Assembly: GCA_036023115.1 (NCBI GenBank)
Contig: JAYKKT010000090.1
Span: 33,526,001 to 33,590,000, forward strand
DNA from: Brasenia schreberi
Taxonomy: Eukaryota; Streptophyta; Magnoliopsida; Nymphaeales; Cabombaceae
Reading direction: 5' to 3'
DNA length: 64,000 nucleotides
Shown here: positions 13,287 to 31,880 of the stretch, in pieces
How positions within the stretch are numbered: the stretch's first letter is position 1
Layout of the letters: the number at the start of each line of letters is the position of its first letter
The notes under the pieces: generated by a model
Databases searched by the model: none
The model's input: only the letters and a program-made list of their open reading frames with translations
Told to the model about the DNA's origin: nothing
Made by a program: the position numbers and the translations under genes

Positions 13287-14424
13287 TAATTGTCTGGTGG
13301 TAATAGCTTTAGTTGACAAATCAGCCCTCTGTTTGATAGATTAAACATACTCTAGCTTGAATTGTTGATTAGATATCTTCTCTCTGATGAAGTGGCAGCC
13401 AATTTCTATATGTTTGGTTCTTTCATGATAAATTGGATTAGAGGCCATCTGAATTGCTGTACTGCTATCAGAGTATAGTGGTATAGAATGATTAAATGAA
13501 AATCCTAGTTCACTAATCAATGAAGATATCCATTTTCTTTCATACATAGCTTGTGTTATAGCTCTGTATTCAGCTTCCGCTATAGATCTTGCAACCACTG
13601 TTTATTTTTTACTCTTCGAAGATACAATGTTACCGCCTAGTAAGGTAACATAGCCTATAGTTGATTTCCTGTCATCATATGAACCAGCCCAGTTTGCATC
13701 AGAATAAAGTTAAATGTCCAAATTTGATGATTTTGAATAAAGTAAACCCATTCCTGAAGTTGATTTGAGGTATCAAAGAATTCTATACACTCTATCCATC
13801 TGATTCTTGGTTGGCGAATGCATATATCTACTGACAATACCAACTGTATAAGTAATGTCTGGTAGTAGCTTTAGTTAACAAATCAGCCCTCTGTTTGATA
13901 GATTGAACATACTCCAGCTTGAGTTCTTGATTAGATATCTTCTCTCTGATGAAGTGGCAGTCAATTTCTATATGTTTGGTTCTTTCATGATAAACTGGAT
14001 TAGAGGCCATCTGAATTGCTGCACTGCTATCAGAGTATAGTGGTATAGAATGATTAAATAAAAATCTCAGTTCACTAATCAATGAAGATATCCATTTTCC
14101 TTCACACATAGCTTGTGCTATAGCTTTGTATTCAGCTTCCACTATAGATCTTGCAACCACTGTTTGTTTTTTTACTCTTCGAAGATACAATGTTACCGCC
14201 TAGTAAGGTAACATAGCCTATAGTTGATTTCCTGTCATCATATGAACCAGCCCAGTTTGCATCGGAATAAAGTTGAATGTCCAAATTTGATGATTTTGAA
14301 TAAAGTAAACCCATTCCTAAAGTTGATTTGAGGTATCGAAGAATTCTATACACTGTATCCATCTGATGCTTGGTTGGCAAATGTATATAGCTGCTCATAA
14401 TACCAACTGCATAAGTAATGTTTG
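13287..14424 (-). repeat. 569-bp tandem duplication of the RNase H region in Copia-C
   Basis: The RNase H end of pol occurs twice in direct order: about 13287-13855 and about 13856-14424. Both contain SIAEAEYRAI/SIVEAEYKAI, SLISEL, IPLYSDSS and [10 protein letters not shown]. Copia-B has it once, so the duplication arose in C. The two units differ by point changes, so it is not recent. Confidence 0.85.
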
Positions 14425-15971
14425 GTTGAGTAATAGTTAAATATATAAGCTTACCAACCAGCTTCTGATATTTGTGAATGTCTTTGAACTCTTCACTGTC
14501 ATCGTAAAAAAATTTCTGGTTTACTTCCATATGGACGTCACTGAGTTTACACTCAAGCATATTTGTTTCTTTAAGAAGATCTATTTAAGTATTTCCGCTG
14601 AGTTAAGAAAATACCTTTGTTGGAATAGAGAACTTCTATGCCCAAGAAATAGTGGAGCCTACCCAAATCCTTAATATCAAATAATTTATGAAGATTCATT
14701 TTCAACTTTGAAATTTCTTGAAGGTCATCTCCTATAACAATATGCAAACGTTTCTATATAATCAATGCCATATGACTGACTATATCCTTTAAAACCAATC
14801 TGGCTTTATATCTCTCCATTGTTCCATCTGCCTTATATTTAATAGTAAGCACCCACTTACATCCTACAATATTCCTATCAGAAGATAACTGTGTGATGGT
14901 CCATATATTGTTTTTCACCAGTGTATTCAATTCTTCTTCAATTGCAGCTTTCCATAAAAGGCACTTGATTGCTTCTTCAAACTTTGAAAGGATCTTATGT
15001 TTTTCAGCATTCATAACAAAGCTTTGAAAACTTTGAGAAGTGTTGGCATATGAAACATAATTAGAAATGAGATACCGTGCACATGATAGAGGAGAGTTAT
15101 GGCTACTTTCATAATATGACGATTTTTCCGTTCAACAATACCATTCTGTTGGGGTGTATAAGGATAGGTAGTCTGATGAACAATCCCCTGTGATCGTAAA
15201 TATTCTTGTAACTGAGTGCCAATGTATTCTCCCCCATTATCTAACCGAAGAATTATTGAATTGAGTACAAATAAATTTATGCACAATGGGAAAAATAGAG
15301 GAAACTTCAGACTTTGTTTTTATTAAGCAAGCAATTGTAGGACGTGTACAATCATTAATAAAGGAGATAAAATACTTATGACCAAACAAAGAAGTGATTG
15401 GACTTGGACCCCATATATCAGAATGAAGAAGTTCAAAAGGTTTAGATCGTCGAGAATCACTTAAAGGATAAGAAGCTCTGTGGTGTTTCCCGAGCCGACA
15501 AACTTCACATTCAAACAGAGATTTATTTGACCAGACTCTAAGTTGAGGTATAACATATGGAATTTTTGACACAGGGAGATGGCCTAGACGATAATGCCAA
15601 AGTCTAATATCAACATCCTGAACTGTTGCTGCTGAAACACTGTAAGAAGTTGAAGGCTGAGAGTGATCTTCAAGAATATATAATCATTTATGTAGTTTAC
15701 CATGTCCAAAGATTTTTCCCGTCTTGAGATCCTAAAATACACAGTCAGTGGGATGAAAGGTTACACAACAGTCGAAGGCACGAGTTAAAGAGCTAACTGA
15801 GAGAAGATTTATTGAAAAACTGGGAACATGATATCCGGATGGTAAATCTGAAATACATGTAGGTACACTTCTGTGTCGAAGCATATAAGTGACAGTGCCA
15901 TCTGTCAATTTAATTGGTTCATGTTCTTTAAGAGTCCTGTAGGCTGAAAAATATGATAATTCTCCTACCAT
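13341..15971 (-). pseudogene. Copia-C pol remnant
   Basis: Reading on the minus strand: protease-side block MVGELSYFSAYRTL (15971), GAG-pre-integrase SKIPYVIPQL with CEVCRLGKHHRASYPL (15572 onward), integrase core HSDIWGPSP, RLDNGGEYIG and TPQQNGIVERKNRHI, then a jump to the RT entry block EEAIKCLLWKAAIEEELN and CKWVLTIKYKADG. RT then jumps from IETFA to GDDLQEI, deleting the palm with YVDD. RT tail and RNase H follow (QKLVGKLIYLTITQPNI, YSDANWAGS), with RNase H duplicated. Many stops and frameshifts. No activity is possible. Confidence 0.85.
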
Positions 15972-16910
15972 ATGATCTATAGCTTATGAATCAATTATCT
16001 AAGTTTTAGAGTGAGAGGGAGAGGAGTGGTTATCCTTTACAGTATGTGTAGCCTAAGCCACTGTAGCTTGGGAAGAAGAAGATGATTTTTCAGATAATCT
16101 CTGTTCAAGACCCTCTATTCTTTTTATAATCTCTTGAATAACATCATTGTTTGGAGTTAACTTTTTGCAGAATGAACTAAGGTATTGTGATTTCTATAGT
16201 AATCTGGTTTACCATGTAATTCCCAACAGTGATCTTTGGTATGACTCGATTTGCCATAATAGGAGCAAACTAGTTTTTCTCTCATATGAATTAAATCGAC
16301 CACGGCCACGTCCACAACTCTGGTGTCCACCTCTGCGTGACATCCGGATGATAACTGAGAGAAGATTTATTGAAAAACTGGGAACATGATATCCGGATGG
16401 TAAATCTGAAATACATATAGGTACACTTCCGTGTTGAAGCATATAAGTGACAGTGCCATCTGCCAATTTAATTGGTTCATATTCTTTAAGAGTCCTGTAG
16501 GCTGAAAAATATGATAATTCTCCTACCATATGATCTGTAGCTTATGAATCAATTATCTAAGTTTTAGAGTGAGAGGGAGAGGAGTGGTTACCCTTTACAG
16601 TATATGTAGCATAAGCCACTGTAGCTTGGGAAGAAGAAGAAGATGATTTTTCAGATAATCTCTATTCAAGACCCTCTATTCTTTTTATAATCTCTTGAAT
16701 AACATCATTGTTTGGAGCTAACTTTTTGTAGAATGAACTAAGGTATTGCGATTTCTATAGTAATCTGGTTTACCATGTAATTCCCAACAGTGATCTTTGG
16801 TATGACTCGATTTGCCATAATGGGAGCAAACTAGTTTTTCTCTCATCTGAATTAAATCGACCACGGCCACGTCCACAACTCTGGTGTCCACCTCTGCCAC
16901 GAAAGTGAGA
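15795..16910 (-). repeat. 558-bp tandem duplication of the gag/protease junction in Copia-C
   Basis: The stretch from the gag zinc-knuckle region to the protease occurs twice at a spacing of 558 bp (15795-16352 and 16353-16910). The join near 16338-16352 carries a few extra bases. Copia-B has the region once. Confidence 0.85.
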
Positions 16911-17635
16911 ACTATCTCCTCTTACCTGAAGAGCATGCTGATCTGTACTAATAACATGATCCTTCTCAAGATTCCTGCGATCTTCTTCTCTGATTAATAA
17001 GGAATAAACGGTGCCCATGGAAGAAATCTCTTCTCTGCCTAAGATATTCGATTTTACTGACTCAAATTCTGGATTCACACCCTACAATAAATCAAATACT
17101 TTCTTCTTTTAAATCTTAGTGTTTCTTTCATTATAACAAGCAGAACACTTGATATTCGTATAGTAGAGGAGTTCATCCCAAAGACCTCGAAGATCTGCAT
17201 AATATTCACTGATAGACCGATTGACTTGTTTGCACTTTCTGATTCTTTTCAGTATCTCATATTCTTTTGTAACATTTTTTTTTGGGAATAAGCCTCTACT
17301 ACTGCACACCAAATCTCGTGAGCAGATTCTAAAAACATAAAAGTTTTGGCAATTAATGGAATCGTTGACTGTAGCAACCAAGATGATATAAATGCATCTT
17401 TTCTTTTCCAGGTAGGATAGAGAATATCTTGAGGCTCTGGAATTGGAGTATGACCCATTAGATGTGCCCATCTCCCCCTTGCTACAATCGCAAGTTCCAC
17501 AGATCTTGCCCATTCCAAGTAATTTTGACCATCTAATTTAGTTGTTGTAATATGGAGAATTTCTGTTTTTTCTAACGAACAAGATTGCTCACCTGTATGA
17601 AAAGAACTTTCAATACCTTTACCTTTGCCCGCCAT
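16545..17635 (-). pseudogene. Copia-C gag remnant
   Basis: Starts with MAGKGKGIESSFHTGEQSC at 17635 and continues through YLEWARSVELAI, AHEIWCAVVEAYSQKK, RSISEYYADLRGLWDELLYY, the RG-rich stretch and a zinc knuckle CSHYGKSSHTKDHC in which the second cysteine is tyrosine. A frameshift lies at the run of T at 17274-17281 and a stop near 17112. Homologous to Copia-B gag at 18752. Confidence 0.85.
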
Positions 17636-18229
17636 TGATCAGGAAGTCTGAAACAAAACTGAATCGAGTCTGTCTTTTGAAATCTGAATCTTGTACTTTG
17701 GCAAATCAGAAGAATAGGTCTTCTTCTATGAATGAAACAAAGGCTAAAATTTATATCCTTGAGATGAAGATACCCAAAATTCAGTTTCGTGACATGTGTA
17801 CCAGTCTCACACACTGATTTCAAACAAGGAAGTCCATTGAATGGGAAAAGTGCATCAATATCCACAACGATGACTTGAAGTAGTCCACGTGATGCAAGTA
17901 GCAATCCACTATGAACCAGCCGTATGAATCAATATCAACGAGCCACGTGATTTTAACAAAAATCGATTCACTATTGATCAATAGATCAATATGCACCATC
18001 GATTTTCCCTAATTTCACTGCTTCAATAAAAAGTTCTGAAATAATCAGATTCACAAATCAAATTTCTGAAATAATCTGATTCACCAAGTCTACTGGTAAG
18101 TCTTCAAGGATTCAATAGTAGATTCATGTTGATTGAAGGACCCAATATCGCATTTTTGTCAAAGCACTTTCTGAAAAACACGCTTCTCACTGATTTTCTT
18201 CAATCATATCATAAAAAAACATCATATAA
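17636..18229 (-). other. Copia-C leader
   Basis: Non-coding leader between gag and primer site, minus strand. Small ORFs on either strand here show no domain. Confidence 0.7.
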
Positions 18230-18511: not shown

Positions 18512-18751
18512 ATTATCTAAGTTGAGCCATTGTGAGTGACTATTGTAAAAAAATTGATTTGGTAAAGCAGTGAATATTCAAGAATTGGAATTACAACAGA
18601 TTACAGTTTGTTATCTTCTAGTGAAATCTGAAATCGTGATCATCTATATCCACACCCTAGTTCTAATTCATGTTGATCTAGGGCAGATTTACAGATTCAC
18701 ATCCAAGTTTAAAGGAGCAGACTTGATAAAAGTAGATATACTTTCTGATCA

Positions 18752-19604
18752 ATGGTCGACAAAGGGAAAGGGATTGAAAGTTCCTCTCATACAGGTGAAC
18801 AATCTTTTTTATTGGAAAAGACTGAAAATTTTCAAATCACGACTACTAAACTAGATGGCAGAAATTGTTTGGAATGGGCTAGGTCTGTAGAACTGGCTAT
18901 TTAGCAAGGGGGAGATGGGCACAACTTATGGGTCACACTCCGATTCCAGAGACACATAATTCCCTATATCCTTCCTAGAAACGAGAAGATGCTTTAATAT
19001 CATCTTGGTTGCTACAATCAATAGTTCCATCAATTGCAAAAACTTTTATGATTTTAGAATTTGCTCATGAAATTTGGTGTGCAGTTGCAGAAGCCTATTC
19101 GAGAAAAAAAAATGTTGCCAAAGAATATGAGACACTGGAAAGAATAAGAAAATGTAAGCAAGGCACTCGGTCTATCAGCGATTATTATACAGATCCCCGA
19201 GGTCTCTGGGATGAACTCCTTTATTACACGAATATCAAGTGTTCTGCTTGTTATAGTGAAAGGAATATTGAGATAGAAAAGAAGAAAGTATTTTATTTAT
19301 TGTGGGGTGTAAATTCTGAATTTGAGTTAGTAAAATTGAATATCTTAGGCAGAGAAGAGCTTCCTTCCCTGGGCATTGTATACTCTTTATTAATTAGAGA
19401 AGAAGATCGCAAAAATCTTCAAAGGGATTATGTTCTTGGTATAGATCAACAGGCTATTCAAGTAAGAGGAGACAGTTTTCATTTCCGTGGCAGAGGTAGA
19501 CACCAGAGTCGTGGCCGTGGACATGGAAGACCTTATTCTGATGAGAAAGAAAAACTTGTTTGTTCATATTGTGGCAAATCATATCACACCAGAGATCACT
19601 CTTG
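18752..19604 (+). pseudogene. Copia-B gag remnant
   Basis: Start chosen at MVDKGKGIES, aligned with MAGKGKGIES of Copia-C. Blocks: LEWARSVELAI then a stop at 18904, AHEIWCAVAEAYSRKKNVAK, RSISDYYTDPRGLWDELLYY, RGRGRHQSRGRGHGRPYS, zinc knuckle CSYCGKSYHTRDH whose last cysteine codon is serine before a stop. An intact stretch is 19009-19605. Encodes the former capsid/nucleocapsid precursor; not functional as it stands. Confidence 0.88.
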
Positions 19605-22255
19605 AGAATTACACGGCAAACCTGATTATTATAGAAATCGCAATCCCTCGGTTCATTCTGTAGACAGTTCAACTCAAAGCATAGATGGAATTGAAGACAT
19701 TATAAAAAGGATAGAGGGTCTAGAACATAAATTATCTGAAAAATCCTCATCTTCTTCGTCCCAGGCTATAATGGCACAGGCTACACATACCGTGAAGGGT
19801 AACCACTTCTCACATTCTCACTCTAAAACTTGGATAATTGATTCAGGGGCTACAGACCATATGGTAGGAGAATTATCGTATTTCTCATCATACATGACTC
19901 CAAAAACAGGAGCCAATTAAGTTGATAGATGGTTCTTACTTATATACGATTGGACAGGGAAGTGTACTTACATGTTTCTCAGATTTATAATCAGTATATC
20001 ATGTTCCCAGTTTTTCGATAAATCTGCTTTCTGTTAGCTCTTTAACTCGTGCCTTGGACTGTTGTGTAACCTTTCATCCTACTGACTGTGTATTTAAGGA
20101 TCTGAAAACGGGAAAAATCTTTGAACATGGTAAACTACAGAAATGATTATATATTCTTGAAGATCACTCTAGCCTTCAACTTCTTACAGTGTTTCAGCAA
20201 CAACAGTTCAAGATGCTGATATTAGTCTTTGGCATTGTCGTCTGAGCCATCTCCCTATGTCAAAAATTTCATATGTTATTCCTCAACTTAGAGTCCAGTC
20301 CAATAAATCTTCGTTTGAATGTGAAGTTTATCAGCTCGGGAAACACCACAGAGCTTCTTATCCTTTAAGTGATTCTCGACGATCTAAACCTTTTGAACTT
20401 CTTCATTCTGATATATGGGGTCCAAGTCCAATCACTTCTTTGTTTGGTCATAAGTATTTTGTCTCCTTTATTAATGATTGTACACGTCCTACAATTGTTT
20501 ACTTAATAAAAACAAAGTATGAAGTTTCCTATATTTTTCCCATTGTGCATAAATTTATTTGTACTCAATTCAATGCTTCTGTGAAAATTTTTCAGTTAGA
20601 TAATGAGGGAGAATAGATTGGCACTCAGTTACAAGAATATTTACGGTCACAGGGGATTGTTCATCAGACTACCTATCCTTATATACCCCAACAAAATGGT
20701 ATTGTTGAACGGAAAAATTGTCATATTATGGAAGTAGCCATAACTCTCCTCTATCATGTGCACGGTATCTCATTTCTAATTATGTTTCATATGCCAACAC
20801 TTCTCAAAGTTATCAAAGCTTTGTTATGAATGCTGAAAAACATAAGATCCCTTCAAAGTTTGAAGAAGCAATCAAGTGCCTTTTATGGAAAGCTGGAATT
20901 GAAGAAGAATTGAATACACTAGTGAAAAACAATACATGGACCATCACACAGTTATCTTCTCATAGGAATATTGTAGGATGTAAGTGGGTGTTTACTATTA
21001 AATATAAGGCAGATGGAACAATGGAGAGATATAAAGCCATATTGGTTTTAAAGGATATAGTCAGTCATATGGCATTGATTATATAGAAACGTTTGCACCC
21101 GTGGCTAAACTTACTTCAATCAGAATATTTCTCAGTATGGGAGCAAACTTGGGATGGGATTTATGGCAACTGAATGTTAAAAACGCTTTATTACAGGGAG
21201 ATTTAAATGAAGAGGTGTATATGGAACTACCTCCAAGAATGATCAGAAATTTGTATATTCTAATAGAGTGTATAAACTCAATAAAGCAATATATGGGTTG
21301 AAACAGTCTCCAAGAGCTTGGTTTGATAAATTCTGTTTATGTTGATACATTATTGTTACAGGAGATGATCTTGAAGAAATATCAAAGTTGAAAATGAATC
21401 TTCATAAATTATTTGATATTAAGGATTTGGGTAGGCTCCACTATTTCTTGGGCATAGAAATTCTCTATTCCAACAAAGGTATTTTCTTAACTCAACGAAA
21501 ATACTTAATGGATCTTCTTAAAGAAACACATATGCTTTAGTGTAAACTCAGTGACATCCATATGAAAGTAAACCAGAAATTTTTCTACGATGACAGTGAA
21601 GAGTTCAAAGACATTCACAAATATCAGAAGCTGGTTGGTAAGCTTATATATTTAACTATTACTCAACCAAACATTACTTATGAAGTTGGTATTATGAGCA
21701 GCTATATGCATTCGCCAACCAAGCATCAGATGGATACAGTGTATAGAATTCTTCGATACCTCAAATCAACATCAGGAATGGGTTTACTTTATTCAAAATA
21801 ATCAAATTTGGACATTTAACTTTATTCTGATGCAGACTAGGCTGGTTCATATGATGACAGGAAATCAACTATAAGCTATGTTACCTTACTAGGCGGTAAC
21901 ATTGTATCTTCGAAGAGTAAAAAACAAACAGTGGTTGCAAGATCTATAGCGGAAGCTGAATACAGAGCTATAGCACAAGCTATGTGTGAAGGAAAATGGA
22001 TATCTTCATTGATTAGTGAACTAGGATTTTCATTTAATCATTCTATACCACTATACTCTGATAGCAGTGCAGCAATTCAGATGGCCTCTAATCCAATTTA
22101 TCATTAAAGAACCAAACATATAGAAATTGACTGCCATTTCATCAGAGAGAAGATATCTAATCAAGAATTCAAGCTGGAGTATGTTTAATCTATCAAACAG
22201 AGGGCTGATTTCTTAACTAAAGCTACTACCAGGAGACGATTAAAGGAGATATTAT
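19605..22255 (+). pseudogene. Copia-B pol remnant
   Basis: Order of copia: protease DSGATDHMVGELSYF (19842 onward), GAG-pre-integrase SLWHCRLSHLPMSKISYVIP, integrase HSDIWGPSPIT and PQQNGIVERKN, then a deletion junction after EVAITLLYHVHGI leading to EEAIKCLLWKAGIEEELN, RT entry CKWVFTIKYKADG, QLNVKNALLQGDLNEEVYME, a second loss that removes YVDD (PRAWFDKF joins to VTGDDLEEI), RT tail and RNase H (GGNIVSSKSKKQTVVARSIA, IPLYSDSSAAIQMASN, HIEIDCHFIREK), ending before the polypurine tract at 22288-22300. Many stops. Confidence 0.88.
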
Positions 22256-26445: not shown

Positions 26446-26770
26446 TGTGCATAAAATAAGATGAGATAAACTGAAATTGCAGAATCAACACATACAATAA
26501 GATGGCTCAGGTGCAGTCGGCAGTCAGAGTGTTGCCGCCACCTTCTGCACTTTCTTATTTCCTTTCTCCAAAAGATTACAGCTGATAGGGTTTTCACCCT
26601 TTAAATATCAGCATACAAAAAGATTAATTTACCCAATTGCCATTAATGAAGCTTATTTAAAATTACCTTTAAAAATATACTTAAATTATATAAAAGAGAC
26701 AAAAATACTAGACAAAAGCATAAATGCAGAATAAGCTTTGCAGGTCGTCAACTCTTATAATTTCCTAACA
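26446..26770 (-). repeat. Copia-F2 3' LTR
   Basis: Starts TGTGCATAAAATAA and ends CCTAACA on the plus strand, next to CTCCCCCTCAAGTTGGG. Related to the Copia-F LTR at 9970-10311. No partner LTR. Confidence 0.65.
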
Positions 26771-26779
26771 CTCCCCCTC

Positions 26780-27334
26780 AAGTTGGGTGAAAGATAGATT
26801 TTACACCCAACTTGGTACAGAACTTGAGCAATGAATTTCTGTTAAGAGCCTTAGTTAACATGTCTGCACATTGGTTATCTGACTTCACATGTTCAAGCTG
26901 AAATTCTTTAGTCTGTATACAGTCCTATATAAAGTGACAATAAAGTTCAATATGTTTTGTTCTCTATGATATATCGGATTAGAGGCTATCTGTATTGTTG
27001 CTTTACTGTCGCAAAATATAGGAATAGAATTATTTGAAAATAGACTGATTTCCATCAGTAGAGAGCGCAACTATTTCCCTTCACATATTCTTAATGCAAT
27101 TGCTCTATATTCTGCTTCTGTTGTAGACCTTGCCAAAACATATTGTTTCTTGCTTTTCCATGATACTATGTTACCTCCAACAAGTGTTATATATCCTGTA
27201 GTTGATTTTATATCTTCTATAGAGCCTGCCCAATTAGCGTCTATACAGATTTCAATTTTTGTACGAATACATTATTCCTTATCCACGAGTTGCTTTAAGT
27301 ATCTTAGTATATGAAAAATTGTGTTCATATGGTA
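26780..27334 (-). pseudogene. Copia-F2 RNase H portion
   Basis: RSLLMEISLFSNNSIPIFCD, SKATIQIASNPIYH and the upstream KILRYLKQLVDKE-like block, with frameshifts (for example after YH, where ERTKHIE is broken). Continues on the far side of LTR-G at 30278. Confidence 0.8.
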
Positions 27335-27339
27335 CTTAG
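27335..27339. repeat. LTR-G target-site duplication, left
   Basis: CTTAG, identical to 30273-30277. It lies in the Copia-F2 pol sequence. Confidence 0.93.
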
Positions 27340-27627
27340 TGTTGAAGAATATGATTTTATGGTCAGTTTTAGTAAATTTGATGTTTTAGGTATTATTGTA
27401 ATTGCCCGTAGTATTAAGGGCATTTTGATTATTTTCTATTTTACAGCCCATTATATAAAGGCTGGAAGTTTGTATTAGGCTTAAGAGGTTGATATTAAGA
27501 AAGAGAGAAAGACGGGGGGCCTTCCATTGGAGGTCTGCCCCCTTCTCCGATCTCCCATATTTTTTCTCTTCAATGTTCTTAATCTTTGTTGTTTGATCTT
27601 CTGCTACGCTACTTCTGAATTCCAACA
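27340..27627 (+). repeat. LTR-G 5' LTR
   Basis: TGTTGAAGAATATG...TTCCAACA. Contains CCCATTATATAAAGGCTGG, a plausible TATA element near 27448-27462. Confidence 0.92.
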
Positions 27628-27639
27628 TGTTATCAGAGC
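27628..27639 (+). other. LTR-G primer binding site
   Basis: TGTTATCAGAGC, one change from the initiator-tRNA-Met site, directly abutting the 5' LTR. Confidence 0.88.
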
Positions 27640-27756
27640 AGCTTGATCGATGGGACCAGTGACAATAGTGACTGACTGCGGATGCATGTCAATGAGTATG
27701 GGTAGTGGTGTCGGCTAGCTGGGTAGCAAGGCTTTGCCAAAGCATAAAAATCGTAT

Positions 27757-27987
27757 ATGTGGTTCCTCCCATGTTCTTACCCCATTTGCTATGAATATCT
27801 TGATCTCAAGAATTATAGCTTCTTCCTATGTTCTTGCGGGTTCCGGCAATGCCTTTTCTGCCATAAGAAGATCCTGAAAGTGGATGGACGGTGCCCTGGT
27901 TGTAGAAAGCAGTACAAGCCTTTAGATGAGGGCACAAAGGGATTCCCACCAGTAACGTATTTGTCCGCTCTTGTAGGATGCGTTTGA
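27757..27987 (+). pseudogene. Captured CNOT4-type RING finger fragment (in LTR-G)
   Basis: Open frame with C...PICYEYLDL, FFLCSCGFRQCLFCHKKIL and GRCPGCRKQYKPL, the C4C4 RING of CNOT4/NOT4-like E3 ubiquitin ligases. The first zinc ligand is displaced (CSYPIC in place of the usual CP-x-C), so the finger may not fold. After KQYKPL the sequence departs from the family. Only about 55 residues of a much larger protein are present, with no intron. It lies sense to the element. Confidence 0.78.
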
Positions 27988-28049
27988 GAATTTAGAGGGC
28001 TCCCTTCAATGGGACTATGCAACCTCAGAATAAAAGAAATACAGACTTG

Positions 28050-28368
28050 CACGCTAATTATTTGATGAAATGCCCAATAAAATTTGCAATATTATGATGG
28101 GCGGATATATGGAAAACTTGGACATTGAAGCTGCATACGAGATGTTTGTTGAAATGCATGAGAGAGATGGATTCCTCGTCTTGTTAAGCTTCAAAGAGTT
28201 GCTTGAGCAAGAGAAGCATAAAGCCATGGTGTGCAGTTATGCTCAGAATGCGAAGCCCAAAGAAGCTCTTAAGTGTTTTATGAAATGTGTTCTGTTGGTG
28301 TGCCTATTAGTGAGGCTGAAGCAGGCATTGAAAACAAGATTCAAGCATTTGGTTTTTTGAAAATAATT
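28050..28368 (+). pseudogene. Captured PPR-protein fragment (in LTR-G)
   Basis: LFDEMPNKICNIMMGGYMEN, then DIEAAYEMFVEMHERDG, then MVCSYAQNAKPKEALKCF and, one frame over, FYEMCSVGVPISEAEAG: two to three pentatricopeptide repeats of the plant PLS type (organelle RNA processing proteins). A stop precedes LFDEM and a frameshift follows KCF. Not a functional gene. Confidence 0.8.
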
Positions 28369-28753
28369 ATGACACTGGAACTGGGGACCATTATTCGTTT
28401 AGACAAATGTGCGATTAATTTTATATCCGAGGTGGTGGCCACAACTGCTTTAAAGACAGTGATGAAGCTTGGATGAGAATAAAAAAGGAAAAAGTTCTGG
28501 GATAAAGCTGTGGATGTAGATGAACTGTGCAGTTCTGGCGAAAAATGGTGGGGAGTTAGAGGGGAGATGCGAGACAATTTCAATCACAGCAACAAGGCAA
28601 TATCTCATACTGAGTATTTTGAGAACAGCAGGTATGTGGAGTTGGTTGTTGATGTCTATTGGGAGCTTCCACCAGTGGTAGGGCCTTCCCAAACACATCA
28701 GATGAGATATGATCCTGCACGTGTAGTTGATCCCATTGTTGAAGATGGCAGGA
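28369..28753 (+). other. LTR-G interior, unrecognised part
   Basis: Contains an open frame (28510-28761) with KWWGVRGEMRDNF and YFENSRYVELVVDVYWELPP that I do not recognise; it may be another captured fragment. No transposon domain. Confidence 0.5.
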
Positions 28754-28828
28754 CTACGTGATCTGATTGTTCTTGTCATCAGAGGCTTTTCTCAGAGATT
28801 TGACAGTACCTCACTAAATTTGCTTTAG
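28754..28828 (+). pseudogene. Captured AIR9 C-terminal tail (in LTR-G)
   Basis: LRDLIVLVIRGFSQRFDSTS then LNLL and a stop, which resembles the C-terminal end of plant AIR9 (auxin-induced-in-root-cultures 9, a cortical microtubule-associated protein). It lies upstream of the more N-terminal AIR9 piece at 28857-29190, so the order is reversed relative to the source gene while the orientation is the same. The assignment rests on memory of the family. Confidence 0.65.
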
Positions 28829-28856
28829 GCGACTTAGATGTGAATGCATCGTGACC

Positions 28857-29243
28857 GATATATTTGGGAGATTAAGTGAGGCATCATGTTCTGTGTCTGA
28901 TCCAATCATACCAGGGTTTCCTAAAATAGGCAAGCTAGAGATTGAAGGCAGAGGCTTTCATACAAACTTATATGCTATTCGTGGCATTTACAGTGGAGGA
29001 AAGGAAGGCCAGAGCAGAATTCAGTGGTTGAGGTCCATGGTCGGCAGTCCCCACCTTATTTCAATCCCTGGTGAGATAGGTCGGATGTATGAGGCCAATG
29101 TGGATGATGTTGGCTATAGTCTTGTGGCTATCTATACTCCTGTAAGAGAAGATGGGCTTGAAGATGGACAACCAGTTTCAACATCAACTGCTTCCAATTT
29201 GTGCGAGAGAAAACTTGATGATGATGCTATTGTTGATGCTTAA
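28857..29243 (+). pseudogene. Captured AIR9 inner fragment with an A9-type repeat (in LTR-G)
   Basis: Open frame: IFGRLSEASCSVSDPIIPGF, KLEIEGRGFHTNLYAIRGIY, SRIQWLRSMVGSPHLISIPG, EIGRMYEANVDDVGYSLVAI, YTPVREDG, closely like the A9 repeat region of AIR9. About 115 residues with no stop and no intron. After QPVSTSTAS it diverges to unrelated sequence before the stop at 29241. Direct neighbour of the AIR9 tail fragment; both probably derive from AIR9 transcripts or genes joined by template switching. Confidence 0.78.
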
Positions 29244-29324
29244 ATGGGCCAAACTGATGAGACATCTAGGAAATATTGCAAAGTCTTGTGACTGTAAGTG
29301 TACCAGTCACCAATGAGCATTGTA

Positions 29325-29480
29325 GACCAACTGTTTGATTCAATGCCTAAGAGAGATGTCTTCGCAGCATATTAACTGTTTGATGAAATGTTTCTGCACG
29401 TCAAGTGTTCGTTGAAATGCTTAAGAAGAGATTATTAACATGCACATCAAGTGTTCGACAAAATGCTCAAGAGAGCTGAA
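29325..29480 (+). pseudogene. Further PPR-like motifs (in LTR-G)
   Basis: LFDSMPKRDVFAAY, FVEMLKRD and HQVFDKMLKRA, separated by stops, resemble the repeated ends of PPR motifs. Too short to assign; possibly another piece of the PPR source gene. Confidence 0.55.
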
Positions 29481-29634
29481 AAATTCAAAAAAAATTTTAT
29501 AAAAGAATGAGATTGGATGGATTGCCATACTGATGAATTAAGCAAGAACGAGAGCTAGCCCTGTGTGGGCACCAAAGTGGAGTTGTGGGCAGATTGGATG
29601 GAATGTCTCTAATCTGTCGATTCTTGTAAAGATT

Positions 29635-29903
29635 GCAGTCATGAGGACTGTTAAAATGGGTTTTGCAGCCATGAGGTTGTTGAAATTTGCAGCCAAAGAA
29701 GCTAATAAAAATGTTGCAGCCATAAAAGCTGCTGAAAATTGGTGAGAAAGACTAAGTTAAAGATGTCGGAGCTAAAGAAGCTGCTGAAGATCACCAACCA
29801 TGAAGGTTGAGTTGAAGTTGTTGTAGCTAAGAAGCTGCTAAAGATTGGTGCAACCATGAAGGCTAATGAAGAATATTGCAACTAGGATGGTTGCTGAAAA
29901 GCG
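29635..29903 (+). repeat. Degenerate about 24-bp tandem repeat in LTR-G
   Basis: Variants of GCAGCCATGAAGGCTGCTGAA-type units recur (for example at 29635, 29658, 29688 and 29717) with decay towards 29903. One frame reads AAMRLLKF, AAKEANKN, AAIKAAEN. Function unknown. A stretch just before it (about 29590-29625) resembles the GGAGGAATGCCTCCAATCTG part of the Copia-B LTR. Confidence 0.6.
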
Positions 29904-29984
29904 AACACCCAAGAGGGTTGGGAAAATTAAAAAAAAATCAATCTTTTGGCAAGTTTGGAGTTCGAAGTATCTCACTCCCAACTT

Positions 29985-29994
29985 GTGGGGGGGG
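29985..29994 (+). other. LTR-G polypurine tract
   Basis: GTGGGGGGGG-type purine run immediately before the TG of the 3' LTR, after CCCAACTT. Confidence 0.85.
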
Positions 29995-30272
29995 TGTTGA
30001 AGAATATGATTTTATGGTTAGTTTAGTAAATTTGATGTTTTACGTATTATTGTAATTGCCCGTAGTACTAAGGGTATTTTGGTCATTTTTTGTTTTACAA
30101 CCTATTATATAAGGGGTGAAAGTTTGTATTAGGGTTAAGAGGTTGATATTAAGAAAGAGAGAAAGAGAGGGGGGTGGCCTCCATTGGAGGTCTGCCCCCT
30201 CCTCCAGTCTCCCATGTTTTTCCTCTTCAATGTTCTTAATATCTTTCGCTACACTACTCCTGAATTCCAACA
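29995..30272 (+). repeat. LTR-G 3' LTR
   Basis: Same sequence as 27340-27627 with scattered changes; ends TTCCAACA before TSD CTTAG (30273-30277). Confidence 0.92.
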
Positions 30273-30277
30273 CTTAG

Positions 30278-31880
30278 AAGGTGATTGCATGAATCAACTT
30301 ACAATGCTTACTGCATATGCTATGTATGAGCGTGTAATAGTTAAATATATTAATTTTCCAATTAGTTGCTGATATCTGGTTACATCCATTTTATCAGCTC
30401 CATCCTCCAATTGTAGCTTATGATTAACATCCATGGGAGCATGAATTGATTTACAATTTTCATCTTAACTTCTCACAATAAGTCTAAGGTATACTTTCTT
30501 TGATTTAAACAAATATTTGTACCTAAGTAAGCTACTTCAATGCCCAAGAAATAATTTAGTCTTATGATGTCCTTGATATCAAATAGCTGATGAAGATCTT
30601 CCTTTAGCATTTGTATTTCCTCAAAATCATCTCCTGTCACAATAATATCAACATATACCAATAACAATGTCAACTTTTCTCCCTTTTTAAAGAATAAAGT
30701 GTGATTACTCACACTCTTTTGATAACCCAAGTTTATAATACTATTGTTGAATTTCTCAAACGAGACTCTACGGGACTGTTTTAGTCCATAGATTGCATTC
30801 TTTAATCTGCAAACTTTGTTTTCTGGATTTTCATAACCAGGTGGTAATTCCATATAGACTTCTTCTTTAAGTTATTCTTGTAAAAATGCATTCTTCACAT
30901 CAAGCTGCCACATAGTCCAATTCTTTTGGGTTGCAATACTAATAATGACCTGTATAGACGTGAACTTTATCACTGGTGCAAAAGTCTCCTCGTAGTCAAT
31001 TCCATATGATTAACTATAATCCCAAGCCACTAATCTTGCTTTGTATCTCTCCAATGTGCCATCTGCTCTGAATTTTAGAGTATACACCCATTTACAACCA
31101 ATTGTTTTTCTGTCTGGTGGTAGATGACTAACCTCTCATGTATGATTCTTTTCAAGTGCCTGAAGTTCAGATGTCATGGCTTCAACCTAGTGTTCATGTA
31201 GTGAAGCTTCAAGAAAATTTTTAGGAACTTAGTATAATTCAGCTTTAAAGATAAATTCTGATAGCTGGATGATAACTGATCATATGAGATAAATCGTGAA
31301 ATGAGTCTTTTCGAATGGCTATGAGAACATCCAAATCATCACTACTTGCTTCTTCCATATTTTCAGTTGAATCTAAGGAAGGTTCTCCCCCTTGGCTCGT
31401 GATGTCCATGGGATTGTGTATGATTATATTTCTCCTCTCCTTTTTATATACTTGCATCTCCTTTCCTTCTTGTTCGTGATTATCCTTTGCAAGAGAATAA
31501 TCTTCATCTGTTGCATCACTCGTAATGTTCAATGGAAGGACAATCTTCAACAGTAGACTTTGACAAGTAAGAAGATTTTTGGAAAAAGGAAGTGGTTTCA
31601 AAGAACGTTACATCCTTAGAGATGTATTTCCTATGAGAGTTAGGATCGTAACAAACATATGTTTCTTTTCACAGGAATATCCAATAAAGACACATTTAAT
31701 CGGAATATCCAATAAAGACACATTTAATCGCCCTTGGATCCAGTTTATCTCGAAATTGATTATATACGTGAATATAACAAACACATCCAAGCACTCTGGG
31801 AATAAGATGAAAATGATTAGTTTCATTCGAGTTAAATGGATATTTTCCATCAGGGACTACAAAAAGAAGTCTATTCATTA
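30278..31880 (-). pseudogene. Copia-F2 RT and integrase C-terminal portion
   Basis: Minus strand: LPRVLGCVCYIHVYNQFRD, KLDPRAIKCVFIGYS (integrase C-terminal domain), an acidic linker, RT with MELPPGYENPENKVCRLKNA, YGLKQSRRVSFEKFN, TLLLVYVDIIVTGDDFEEI and FLGIEVAYL. The catalytic YVDD has lost one aspartate codon (YVDII). A 29-bp direct duplication lies at 31678-31735. Stops and frameshifts elsewhere. Truncated at about 31880. Confidence 0.83.

What the first reader, a model, noticed from the sequence alone, without database searches (positions are those of the whole stretch)
27340..30272. LTR-G: a complete LTR retrotransposon whose cargo is a mosaic of host-gene fragments
The element has every structural mark of an LTR retrotransposon (paired LTRs, TSD CTTAG, initiator-tRNA-Met primer site, polypurine tract) but no gag or pol. 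Its interior holds, all in sense orientation, a CNOT4-type RING piece, PPR pieces, two AIR9 pieces, unrecognised ORFs and a degenerate 24-bp repeat. Capture of cellular sequence by LTR elements is known (Bs1 in maize), but several unrelated genes in a 2.4-kb interior is unusual and could represent an undescribed non-autonomous family that shuffles exons. Insertion into Copia-F2 coding sequence is proven by the uninterrupted reading on both sides.
Basis: partly seen in the sequence, partly recalled or inferred. Interest (0 to 1): 0.9.

Follow-up and report, generated by a model that had tools for sequence, protein, structure and literature searches.

The report
Mobile element carrying swapped gene pieces
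This is one copy of a plant jumping-gene family that has no protein genes for moving and that, in most copies examined, carries a different set of pieces of ordinary plant genes, in the tested cases copied from spliced messenger RNA, so it works as a natural gene-fragment shuffler.

Summary
Confirmed, and larger than the finding. Window 27340-30272 is an LTR retrotransposon without gag/pol domains (LTRs 89.5% identical, TSD CTTAG, PBS, purine tract) inserted in Copia pol. The host assembly (1.06 Gb) holds many relatives (40 of 40 scored LTR places, its own included); I paired LTRs for 22 distinct elements. They share LTRs and a 3' tail of 0.5-1.0 kb; sequence 5' of it is mostly private: among 19 elements (171 pairs) 6 pairs share 100 nt or more beyond leader and tail. 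Of these 19, 14 have host-gene Pfam domains above cut-off in sense, 3 weaker, 2 none; antisense of the 8 tested: none. At least 6 of 19 carry two or more unrelated families. In LTR-G a gene X intron and an AIR9 intron are missing exactly; in L019 seven helicase exon blocks are fused. Siblings lack AIR9, so it was added late. One relative (TSD CTCTC) looks like one insertion joining two family pieces and a Copia piece. Best mechanism: template switching of reverse transcriptase among co-packaged RNAs, keeping a constant 3' tail. Multi-gene capture is known (Bs1, GmaRetroS15); I found no described family in which most examined copies differ in cargo. Helper, species and transcription remain unknown.

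The parts
27335..27339 (+). target-site duplication CTTAG, left copy
27340..27627 (+). 5' LTR (TG...CA)
   Evidence: 40 of 40 scored places in the genome incl. its own
27628..27639 (+). primer-binding site TGTTATCAGAGC; several relatives read TGGTATCAGAGC
   Evidence: complementarity to initiator tRNA-Met is recalled
27776..28002 (+). cargo: CNOT4-type RING fragment (zf-RING_4); donor-like C85:14585244 (91%), C49 (90%)
28003..28312 (+). cargo: PPR-type fragment; 28003-28170 is 89% to C91:20312776-20312944(-), whose nature was not checked; right limit approximate
28313..28752 (+). cargo: gene X, two exons fused (one intron absent), a conserved protein of about 145-158 residues; donor-like C80:6081770-6082448(-), C51:4406175-4406874
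28754..28825 (+). cargo: unassigned piece between gene X and AIR9
28826..29190 (+). cargo: AIR9 fragment, three exons fused; first intron read at both ends, second seen as a 2.1-kb gap with its donor end read; donor-like C68:6007957-6011092
29191..29260 (+). cargo: unassigned piece between AIR9 and tail
29261..29994 (+). constant 3' tail of the family: PPR-like motifs (about 29321-29480), degenerate 24-bp repeats, purine tract 29985-29994
29995..30272 (+). 3' LTR
30273..30277 (+). target-site duplication CTTAG, right copy

Best explanation
LTR-G is one member of a large non-autonomous LTR retrotransposon family. The constant parts are the LTRs, the primer site and a 3' tail of about 0.5-1.0 kb ending in the purine tract; between primer site and tail sits a replaceable payload of host mRNA fragments. 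Proposed working: the LTR-driven RNA is packaged by a helper (unknown, perhaps Copia); minus-strand synthesis jumps to the 3' end and copies LTR and tail; reverse transcriptase then switches to a co-packaged host or Copia RNA, copies part of it, switches again, and finally returns to a family RNA upstream. The mosaic integrates and may be amplified. Shown: the family, the constant tail, mostly private sense-strand cargo, exact intron loss in two elements (LTR-G, L019), stepwise build-up in LTR-G's siblings, and one TSD-flanked unit of three RNA-derived pieces. Inferred: helper, packaging, switching as the cause, the PPR-like motifs in the tail as landing sites, and that the cargo does nothing for the element.
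For: Constant tail, private cargo: each of 15 interiors shares tail sequence with all 14 others; among 19 elements 6 of 171 pairs share 100 nt or more beyond leader and tail. Sense host domains above Pfam cut-off in 14 of 19, weaker in 3 (L012, L012b, L013), none in 2 (L023, L047); no antisense hit in the 8 of 19 tested (24 frames). Introns missing exactly, GT..AG read at both ends in the donor: gene X (two paralogues) and the first AIR9 intron, two helicase introns of 122 and 89 nt for L019; seven collinear helicase blocks fused. Donor-like places on different contigs within one element: C85, C80/C51, C68 (LTR-G); C68, C69 (L019); C85, C70 (L011). Siblings L031, L032 and L042 have gene X but no AIR9, share its right edge (28753) and the tail entry (29261), and differ at the left edge (27734, 28205, 28565). 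Divergences fit a late AIR9 capture: AIR9-host 0.037, gene X-host 0.049-0.062 (C80), RING-host 0.094, LTR-LTR 0.107, i.e. about 0.054 per branch. L025:882-5087 = LTR, DYW cargo, tail, truncated LTR, Copia RT/RNase H, tail end, LTR, with CTCTC on both sides.
Against: No transcript data. Junction homology was looked at in one join only and is weak: nine bases CTTTAGGCG are shared by LTR-G and two of the three siblings (the third has CTTTAGGTG), of which TAGGC is also in host AIR9, but further left LTR-G does not match the siblings. No helper was found; the Copia piece in L025 is cargo. Intron loss was tested in two elements; L011's donor-like places match in single blocks, which say nothing. The third helicase junction gave no clean GT..AG in my script. 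Two short hits of L019's leading piece on C78 are not collinear and are not counted as a donor. Apart from RING and AIR9 (Pfam) and gene X (homologues), donor-like places were not checked to be genes rather than other elements. LTR-G is old (10.7% LTR divergence). DNA recombination between elements after integration could make some sibling mosaics. CTCTC is low-complexity, so that TSD could be partly chance.
Confidence: 0.85

Rival explanations
1. Read-through transduction: element RNA runs into neighbouring genes, is spliced and later recombines, one neighbour at a time, as described for Bs1.
For: Would give sense, spliced cargo; review PMC13317346 (passages) describes Bs1 as three transductions.
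Against: Cargo lies between PBS and tail, inside the element, and pieces from several contigs sit in one copy; in LTR-G AIR9 lies where its siblings have other sequence between gene X and tail. Transduction alone needs a further switch to get inside. Whether donors neighbour family LTRs was not searched.
Confidence: 0.09
2. DNA-level patchwork: gene pieces came in by ectopic recombination, gene conversion or filler DNA at break repair after integration.
For: Some siblings differ by modules, and tails hold repeats that could recombine; microhomology also marks end joining.
Against: Introns are absent exactly; detected cargo is sense only in the 8 elements scanned both ways; L025's mosaic has a TSD around the whole unit.
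Confidence: 0.04
3. A local rearrangement between two solo LTRs.
For: Solo LTRs with TSD exist in the family (L016 ATAAG, L018 ATTTC).
Against: TSD at the outer ends, PBS and PPT in place, 21 other paired elements with the same tail.
Confidence: 0.01

Closest known systems
Bs1 of maize (seen through passages of review PMC13317346; the original PMC2899935 is not held)
   Same: LTR element with fragments of three unrelated host genes
   Different: There a low-copy element with a chimeric gene reported transcribed and translated; here a family whose examined copies mostly have different cargo, a constant 3' tail, and stops in the captured frames of LTR-G
Gene-carrying TRIMs, e.g. GmaRetroS15 of soybean (PMC4717578, passages)
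   Same: Exons only, without introns; fragments of three genes in one element
   Different: 30 elements in 7 of 289 subfamilies, 1.17-1.45 kb; here elements of 2.2-3.6 kb, cargo in 17 of 19 examined and mostly different between copies
LTR elements with captured genes in maize, rice, sorghum and pepper (PMC2774510, PMC3726574, PMC5664825; passages)
   Same: Capture of spliced mRNA by LTR elements; PMC5664825 also mentions cases of two or three genes inside single LTR elements
   Different: In maize no single element was found with fragments of more than one standard nuclear gene; here at least 6 of 19 elements (5 if L021 and L028, which share cargo, count once) carry two or more unrelated families
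Template-switch chimeras Veju and BARE-2/Wis-2 (review PMC13317346, passages)
   Same: Abnormal template switching joins unrelated RNAs in an LTR element
   Different: Those join transposon or unknown sequence; here mostly host-gene sequence, repeatedly
Pack-MULEs and gene-carrying Helitrons
   Same: Families whose copies carry many different host gene fragments (recalled; passages)
   Different: DNA transposons; Pack-MULEs keep introns. Here LTRs, 5-bp TSD, introns gone where tested

Membership tests
non-autonomous LTR retrotransposon | two direct LTRs with TG...CA ends and a short TSD | tested here: met
   Relatives: exact TSD in L011, L012, L012b, L014, L015, L020, L031 and the L025 unit; one mismatch in L009, L013, L019, L021; not matched as printed in L010, L023, L028 and L039, L047; not readable or not examined in L040, L032, L042, L046
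non-autonomous LTR retrotransposon | PBS after the 5' LTR and PPT before the 3' LTR | tested here: met
non-autonomous LTR retrotransposon | no gag or pol domains | tested here: met
   no RVT_2, rve or gag family at E 0.01 in sense scans of 19 elements (for the window six ORFs, for L010, L039, L040, L046 and L047 the cargo only), except RVT_2 in the second L025 unit, which is Copia cargo
Ty1/Copia superfamily | pol with integrase before RT | not testable with these tools
   no pol; LTR ends, PBS type and 5-bp TSD are compatible; helper not found
Bs1-type gene-capturing LTR element | several unrelated host genes, without introns, in one element | tested here: met
Bs1-type gene-capturing LTR element | expressed chimeric open frame | not tested
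   no transcripts; captured frames of LTR-G hold stops
TRIM | very short element (gene-bearing TRIMs 1.17-1.45 kb in PMC4717578) | tested here: not met
   2.9 kb for LTR-G; 2.2-3.6 kb and interiors 1.66-3.01 kb in the 14
LARD | long non-coding interior, over about 4 kb (recalled) | tested here: not met
   interior 2.37 kb in LTR-G, at most 3.01 kb in the 14
Pack-type DNA transposon or Helitron | terminal inverted repeats or Helitron ends; introns kept | tested here: not met
   no inverted repeats of 20 nt or more in 26500-31000; introns absent; Helitron ends not searched as such

The most novel reading that the evidence does not exclude
A dedicated mRNA-shuffling retroelement family: the constant 3' tail, with its PPR-like motifs near the border between constant and variable parts, acts as a landing pad at which reverse transcriptase leaves and re-enters the element RNA, so that lineage after lineage re-samples the host transcriptome and assembles new multi-gene mosaics, with a strong bias to PPR mRNAs.
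Probability: 0.3. Interest if true: 0.88.

Novelty: new variant of a known kind. Interest (0 to 1): 0.74.

Why it matters
Gene capture by LTR elements is usually known as scattered cases. Here one family gives many captures between the same fixed ends, so the direction of copying, junction rules, template preference and rate could be read from one genome. It also supplies many ready-made exon fusions beside LTR promoters.

Tried and rejected
Rejected: solo-LTR rearrangement, DNA filler, Pack-type transposon (see rivals and membership). Rejected after a test: that the Copia RT/RNase H in L025 belongs to the family's autonomous partner; of the 40 scored places only L025 itself matches the query beyond base 1326, where the family tail begins (about 1319), so the Copia piece is cargo. 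The L011 zinc knuckle was considered a gag remnant; it matches C70 and C81 at 95 and 92%, and its Pfam model is not a gag family by name; whether those places are genes was not checked. A C78 donor for L019 was dropped because its two hits are not collinear. Gene X has no Pfam hit in its donor-like locus L034 but 36 homologues, two of them named plants. My earlier count of cargo-sharing pairs (from, which was filtered) was too low and is replaced. Literature searches for a family of this kind gave only the cases cited; I saw listings and passages, and subscription papers are mostly not held.
Full report
Observation. The element at 27340-30272 is real: paired LTRs, TSD CTTAG, PBS and PPT in the sequence, insertion in a minus-strand Copia pol whose frame reads through the rejoined site, although two stops lie in the stretch shown. 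Of six sense ORFs scanned, three give RING (9.9e-14), PPR (2.6e-7) and the AIR9 A9 domain (2.5e-18) (at E 0.001 the RING matches three solved structures, all NOT4); the antisense frames give nothing at 0.01.

Family. The window lies in a 1.055-Gb assembly of 92 contigs. The 5' LTR matched in 40 of 40 scored places, its own and that of a local duplicate included (3196 candidates, so a lower bound); several are pairs 2.0-3.4 kb apart. From 20 fetched stretches I paired 14 further elements (one search printed 17 pairings; one each in L010 and L012 and the second L025 unit were dropped); from loci seven more (in L040, L042 and L046 one LTR is partial or cut by the locus end): 22 distinct with the window's. 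Of the seven stretches without a pair, three LTRs look solo (L016 ATAAG and L018 ATTTC exact, L017 four of five), three are followed by a PBS-like stretch (L024, L026, L027; the last two have identical flanks) and one is preceded by a PPT (L022). Tail bases 29481-29994 matched in 40 of 40 scored places (1648 candidates).

Constant and variable parts. Each of the 15 interiors first compared shares tail sequence with all 14 others. Measured on 19 elements, the uninterrupted tail is 0.5-1.0 kb; in L009 and L023, which share it, an insert of about 0.8 kb interrupts the tail. Beyond tail and leader, 6 of 171 pairs share 100 nt or more: L009-L023, L009-L025 (465 nt), L021-L028 (about 2 kb), L019-L028 and L019-L021 (about 117 nt, GUCT), L039-L040 (about 140 nt); there are also a 66-nt match (L020-L040) and two PPR-like matches at 63 and 68%. 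A leader of 46-130 nt after the PBS is shared by subsets. In 13 of 14 relatives the leftmost base of the tail match in the E 1e-5 search lies at window 29261-29423, in or beside the PPR-like motif zone; in L012b it lies farther right. Some PPR cargo also matches the tail motifs weakly.

Cargo. Sense Pfam hits (E at most 0.01): L009 DYW and NPH3; L010 calreticulin; L011 FAF and zinc knuckle; L012 E1 dehydrogenase (below cut-off); L012b mitochondrial carrier (below cut-off); L013 PPR (below cut-off); L014 SAUR; L015 PPR and XPG_N (the latter below cut-off); L019 PPR, helicase C and GUCT; L020 Spb1_C; L021 and L028 EF-hand, PPR, E motif, GUCT (below cut-off); L023 none; L025 DYW; L039 ArfGAP; L040 HMG box; L046 PPR; L047 none. 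Counting the window's element and leaving out its siblings L031, L032 and L042 (for L042's left piece a scan gave nothing): 14 of 19 above cut-off, 3 weaker only, 2 none. Two or more unrelated families: LTR-G, L009, L011, L019, L021, L028, i.e. 6 of 19. Antisense was scanned for 8 of 19 (window, L009, L011, L013, L015, L019, L021, L023): no hit in 24 frames. PPR-type domains occur in 9 of 19 (L013 below cut-off), or 7 of 17 if L009/L025 and L021/L028 count once; that this far exceeds the share of PPR genes in plants is recalled, not measured.

Spliced origin. In LTR-G the donor-like genes break at GT..AG introns where the element is continuous: gene X (C80 and C51) and the first AIR9 intron (C68), read at both ends; the second AIR9 intron is a 2.1-kb gap on C68 of which only the donor end was read. 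Host identity is supported by zf-RING_4 in L036 and AIR9 in L044. Gene X has 36 homologues, up to 79% identical; the two named ones are plants (Ipomoea batatas 'transmembrane protein, putative', Solanum commersonii). In L019 the helicase cargo matches seven collinear blocks on C69, C91 and C74; two introns on C69 were read at base level (122 and 89 nt), a third did not resolve. Its PPR part matches C68 in one block at 95%. L011 joins single-block matches on C85 (82%) and C70 (95%), which do not test splicing.

History of LTR-G. L031, L032 and L042 share gene X up to 28753 and the tail from 29261, but have about 120-170 nt of other sequence where LTR-G has AIR9; their left edges differ; L033 shares the left side only to 28317. 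At the left AIR9 join, CTTTAGGCG is found in LTR-G and two of three siblings, and TAGGC also in host AIR9; further left LTR-G is unlike the siblings, so this is suggestive only. Divergence from host is 0.037 for AIR9 (248 nt), 0.049-0.062 for gene X against C80 and 0.069-0.090 against C51, 0.094-0.105 for RING; LTR-G differs from L031 by 0.081; the LTRs differ by 0.107, about 0.054 per branch. This fits AIR9 captured last, near the time of insertion, with the caveat that genes differ in constraint. At 1.3e-8 per site per year (the rate used in PMC5664825) the insertion would be about 4 million years old; the rate for this species is unknown.

A mosaic caught whole. L025:882-5087 runs LTR, DYW cargo, tail, LTR cut at base 258, Copia RT/RNase H, end of tail, LTR, with CTCTC on both sides (RVT_2 4e-18). 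The Copia piece matches 40 of 40 scored places, and only L025 itself continues into the family tail. One cDNA made from two family RNAs and a Copia RNA would look like this.

Mechanism and limits. Sense, spliced, internal, tail-anchored cargo fits switching during minus-strand synthesis. Helper, packaging signal, transcription and junction statistics are open. 

Known work. Bs1 (three genes), gene-bearing TRIMs (GmaRetroS15, three genes, exons only), and captures in maize, rice, sorghum and pepper are the precedents (passages read). In seven searches I saw no family with a constant 3' tail and different multi-gene cargo per copy; these cover open-licence papers only, seen as listings with starts of abstracts.

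Noticed in passing
window 1-24225 and 39697-64000: Near-perfect direct duplication (99.95-99.98%) with a period of about 39.7 kb; a second copy of LTR-G, identical in the 5' LTR, interior and tail stretches compared, lies 39,775 bp downstream at C90:33593115, outside the window. Either a very recent tandem duplication or an assembly artefact.
   Followed up: partly
L025:882-5087: Unit with an internal LTR truncated at base 258, possibly the end of R, as if reverse transcriptase had jumped onto the 3' end of a second family RNA.
   Followed up: yes
29321-29480 and the same zone in relatives: The constant tail carries PPR-like motifs (about TTTGATGAAATGCC), 43-46 nt apart in L014 and L025, while PPR is also the commonest cargo; the motif may guide switching or be an old PPR capture.
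   Followed up: partly
L011 cargo bases 694-1067: The zinc-knuckle piece next to the tail recurs at several places with different left edges (784, 928, 950, 992, 1006) and right edges at 1066-1067, the query's end: either tail-anchored copies in relatives or host gene copies.
   Followed up: no
window 14743-16336 and 19490-21097; 13859-14742 and 21351-22232; 16352-17647 and 18740-20036: Large inverted repeats at 82-96% identity within each duplicated half.
   Followed up: no
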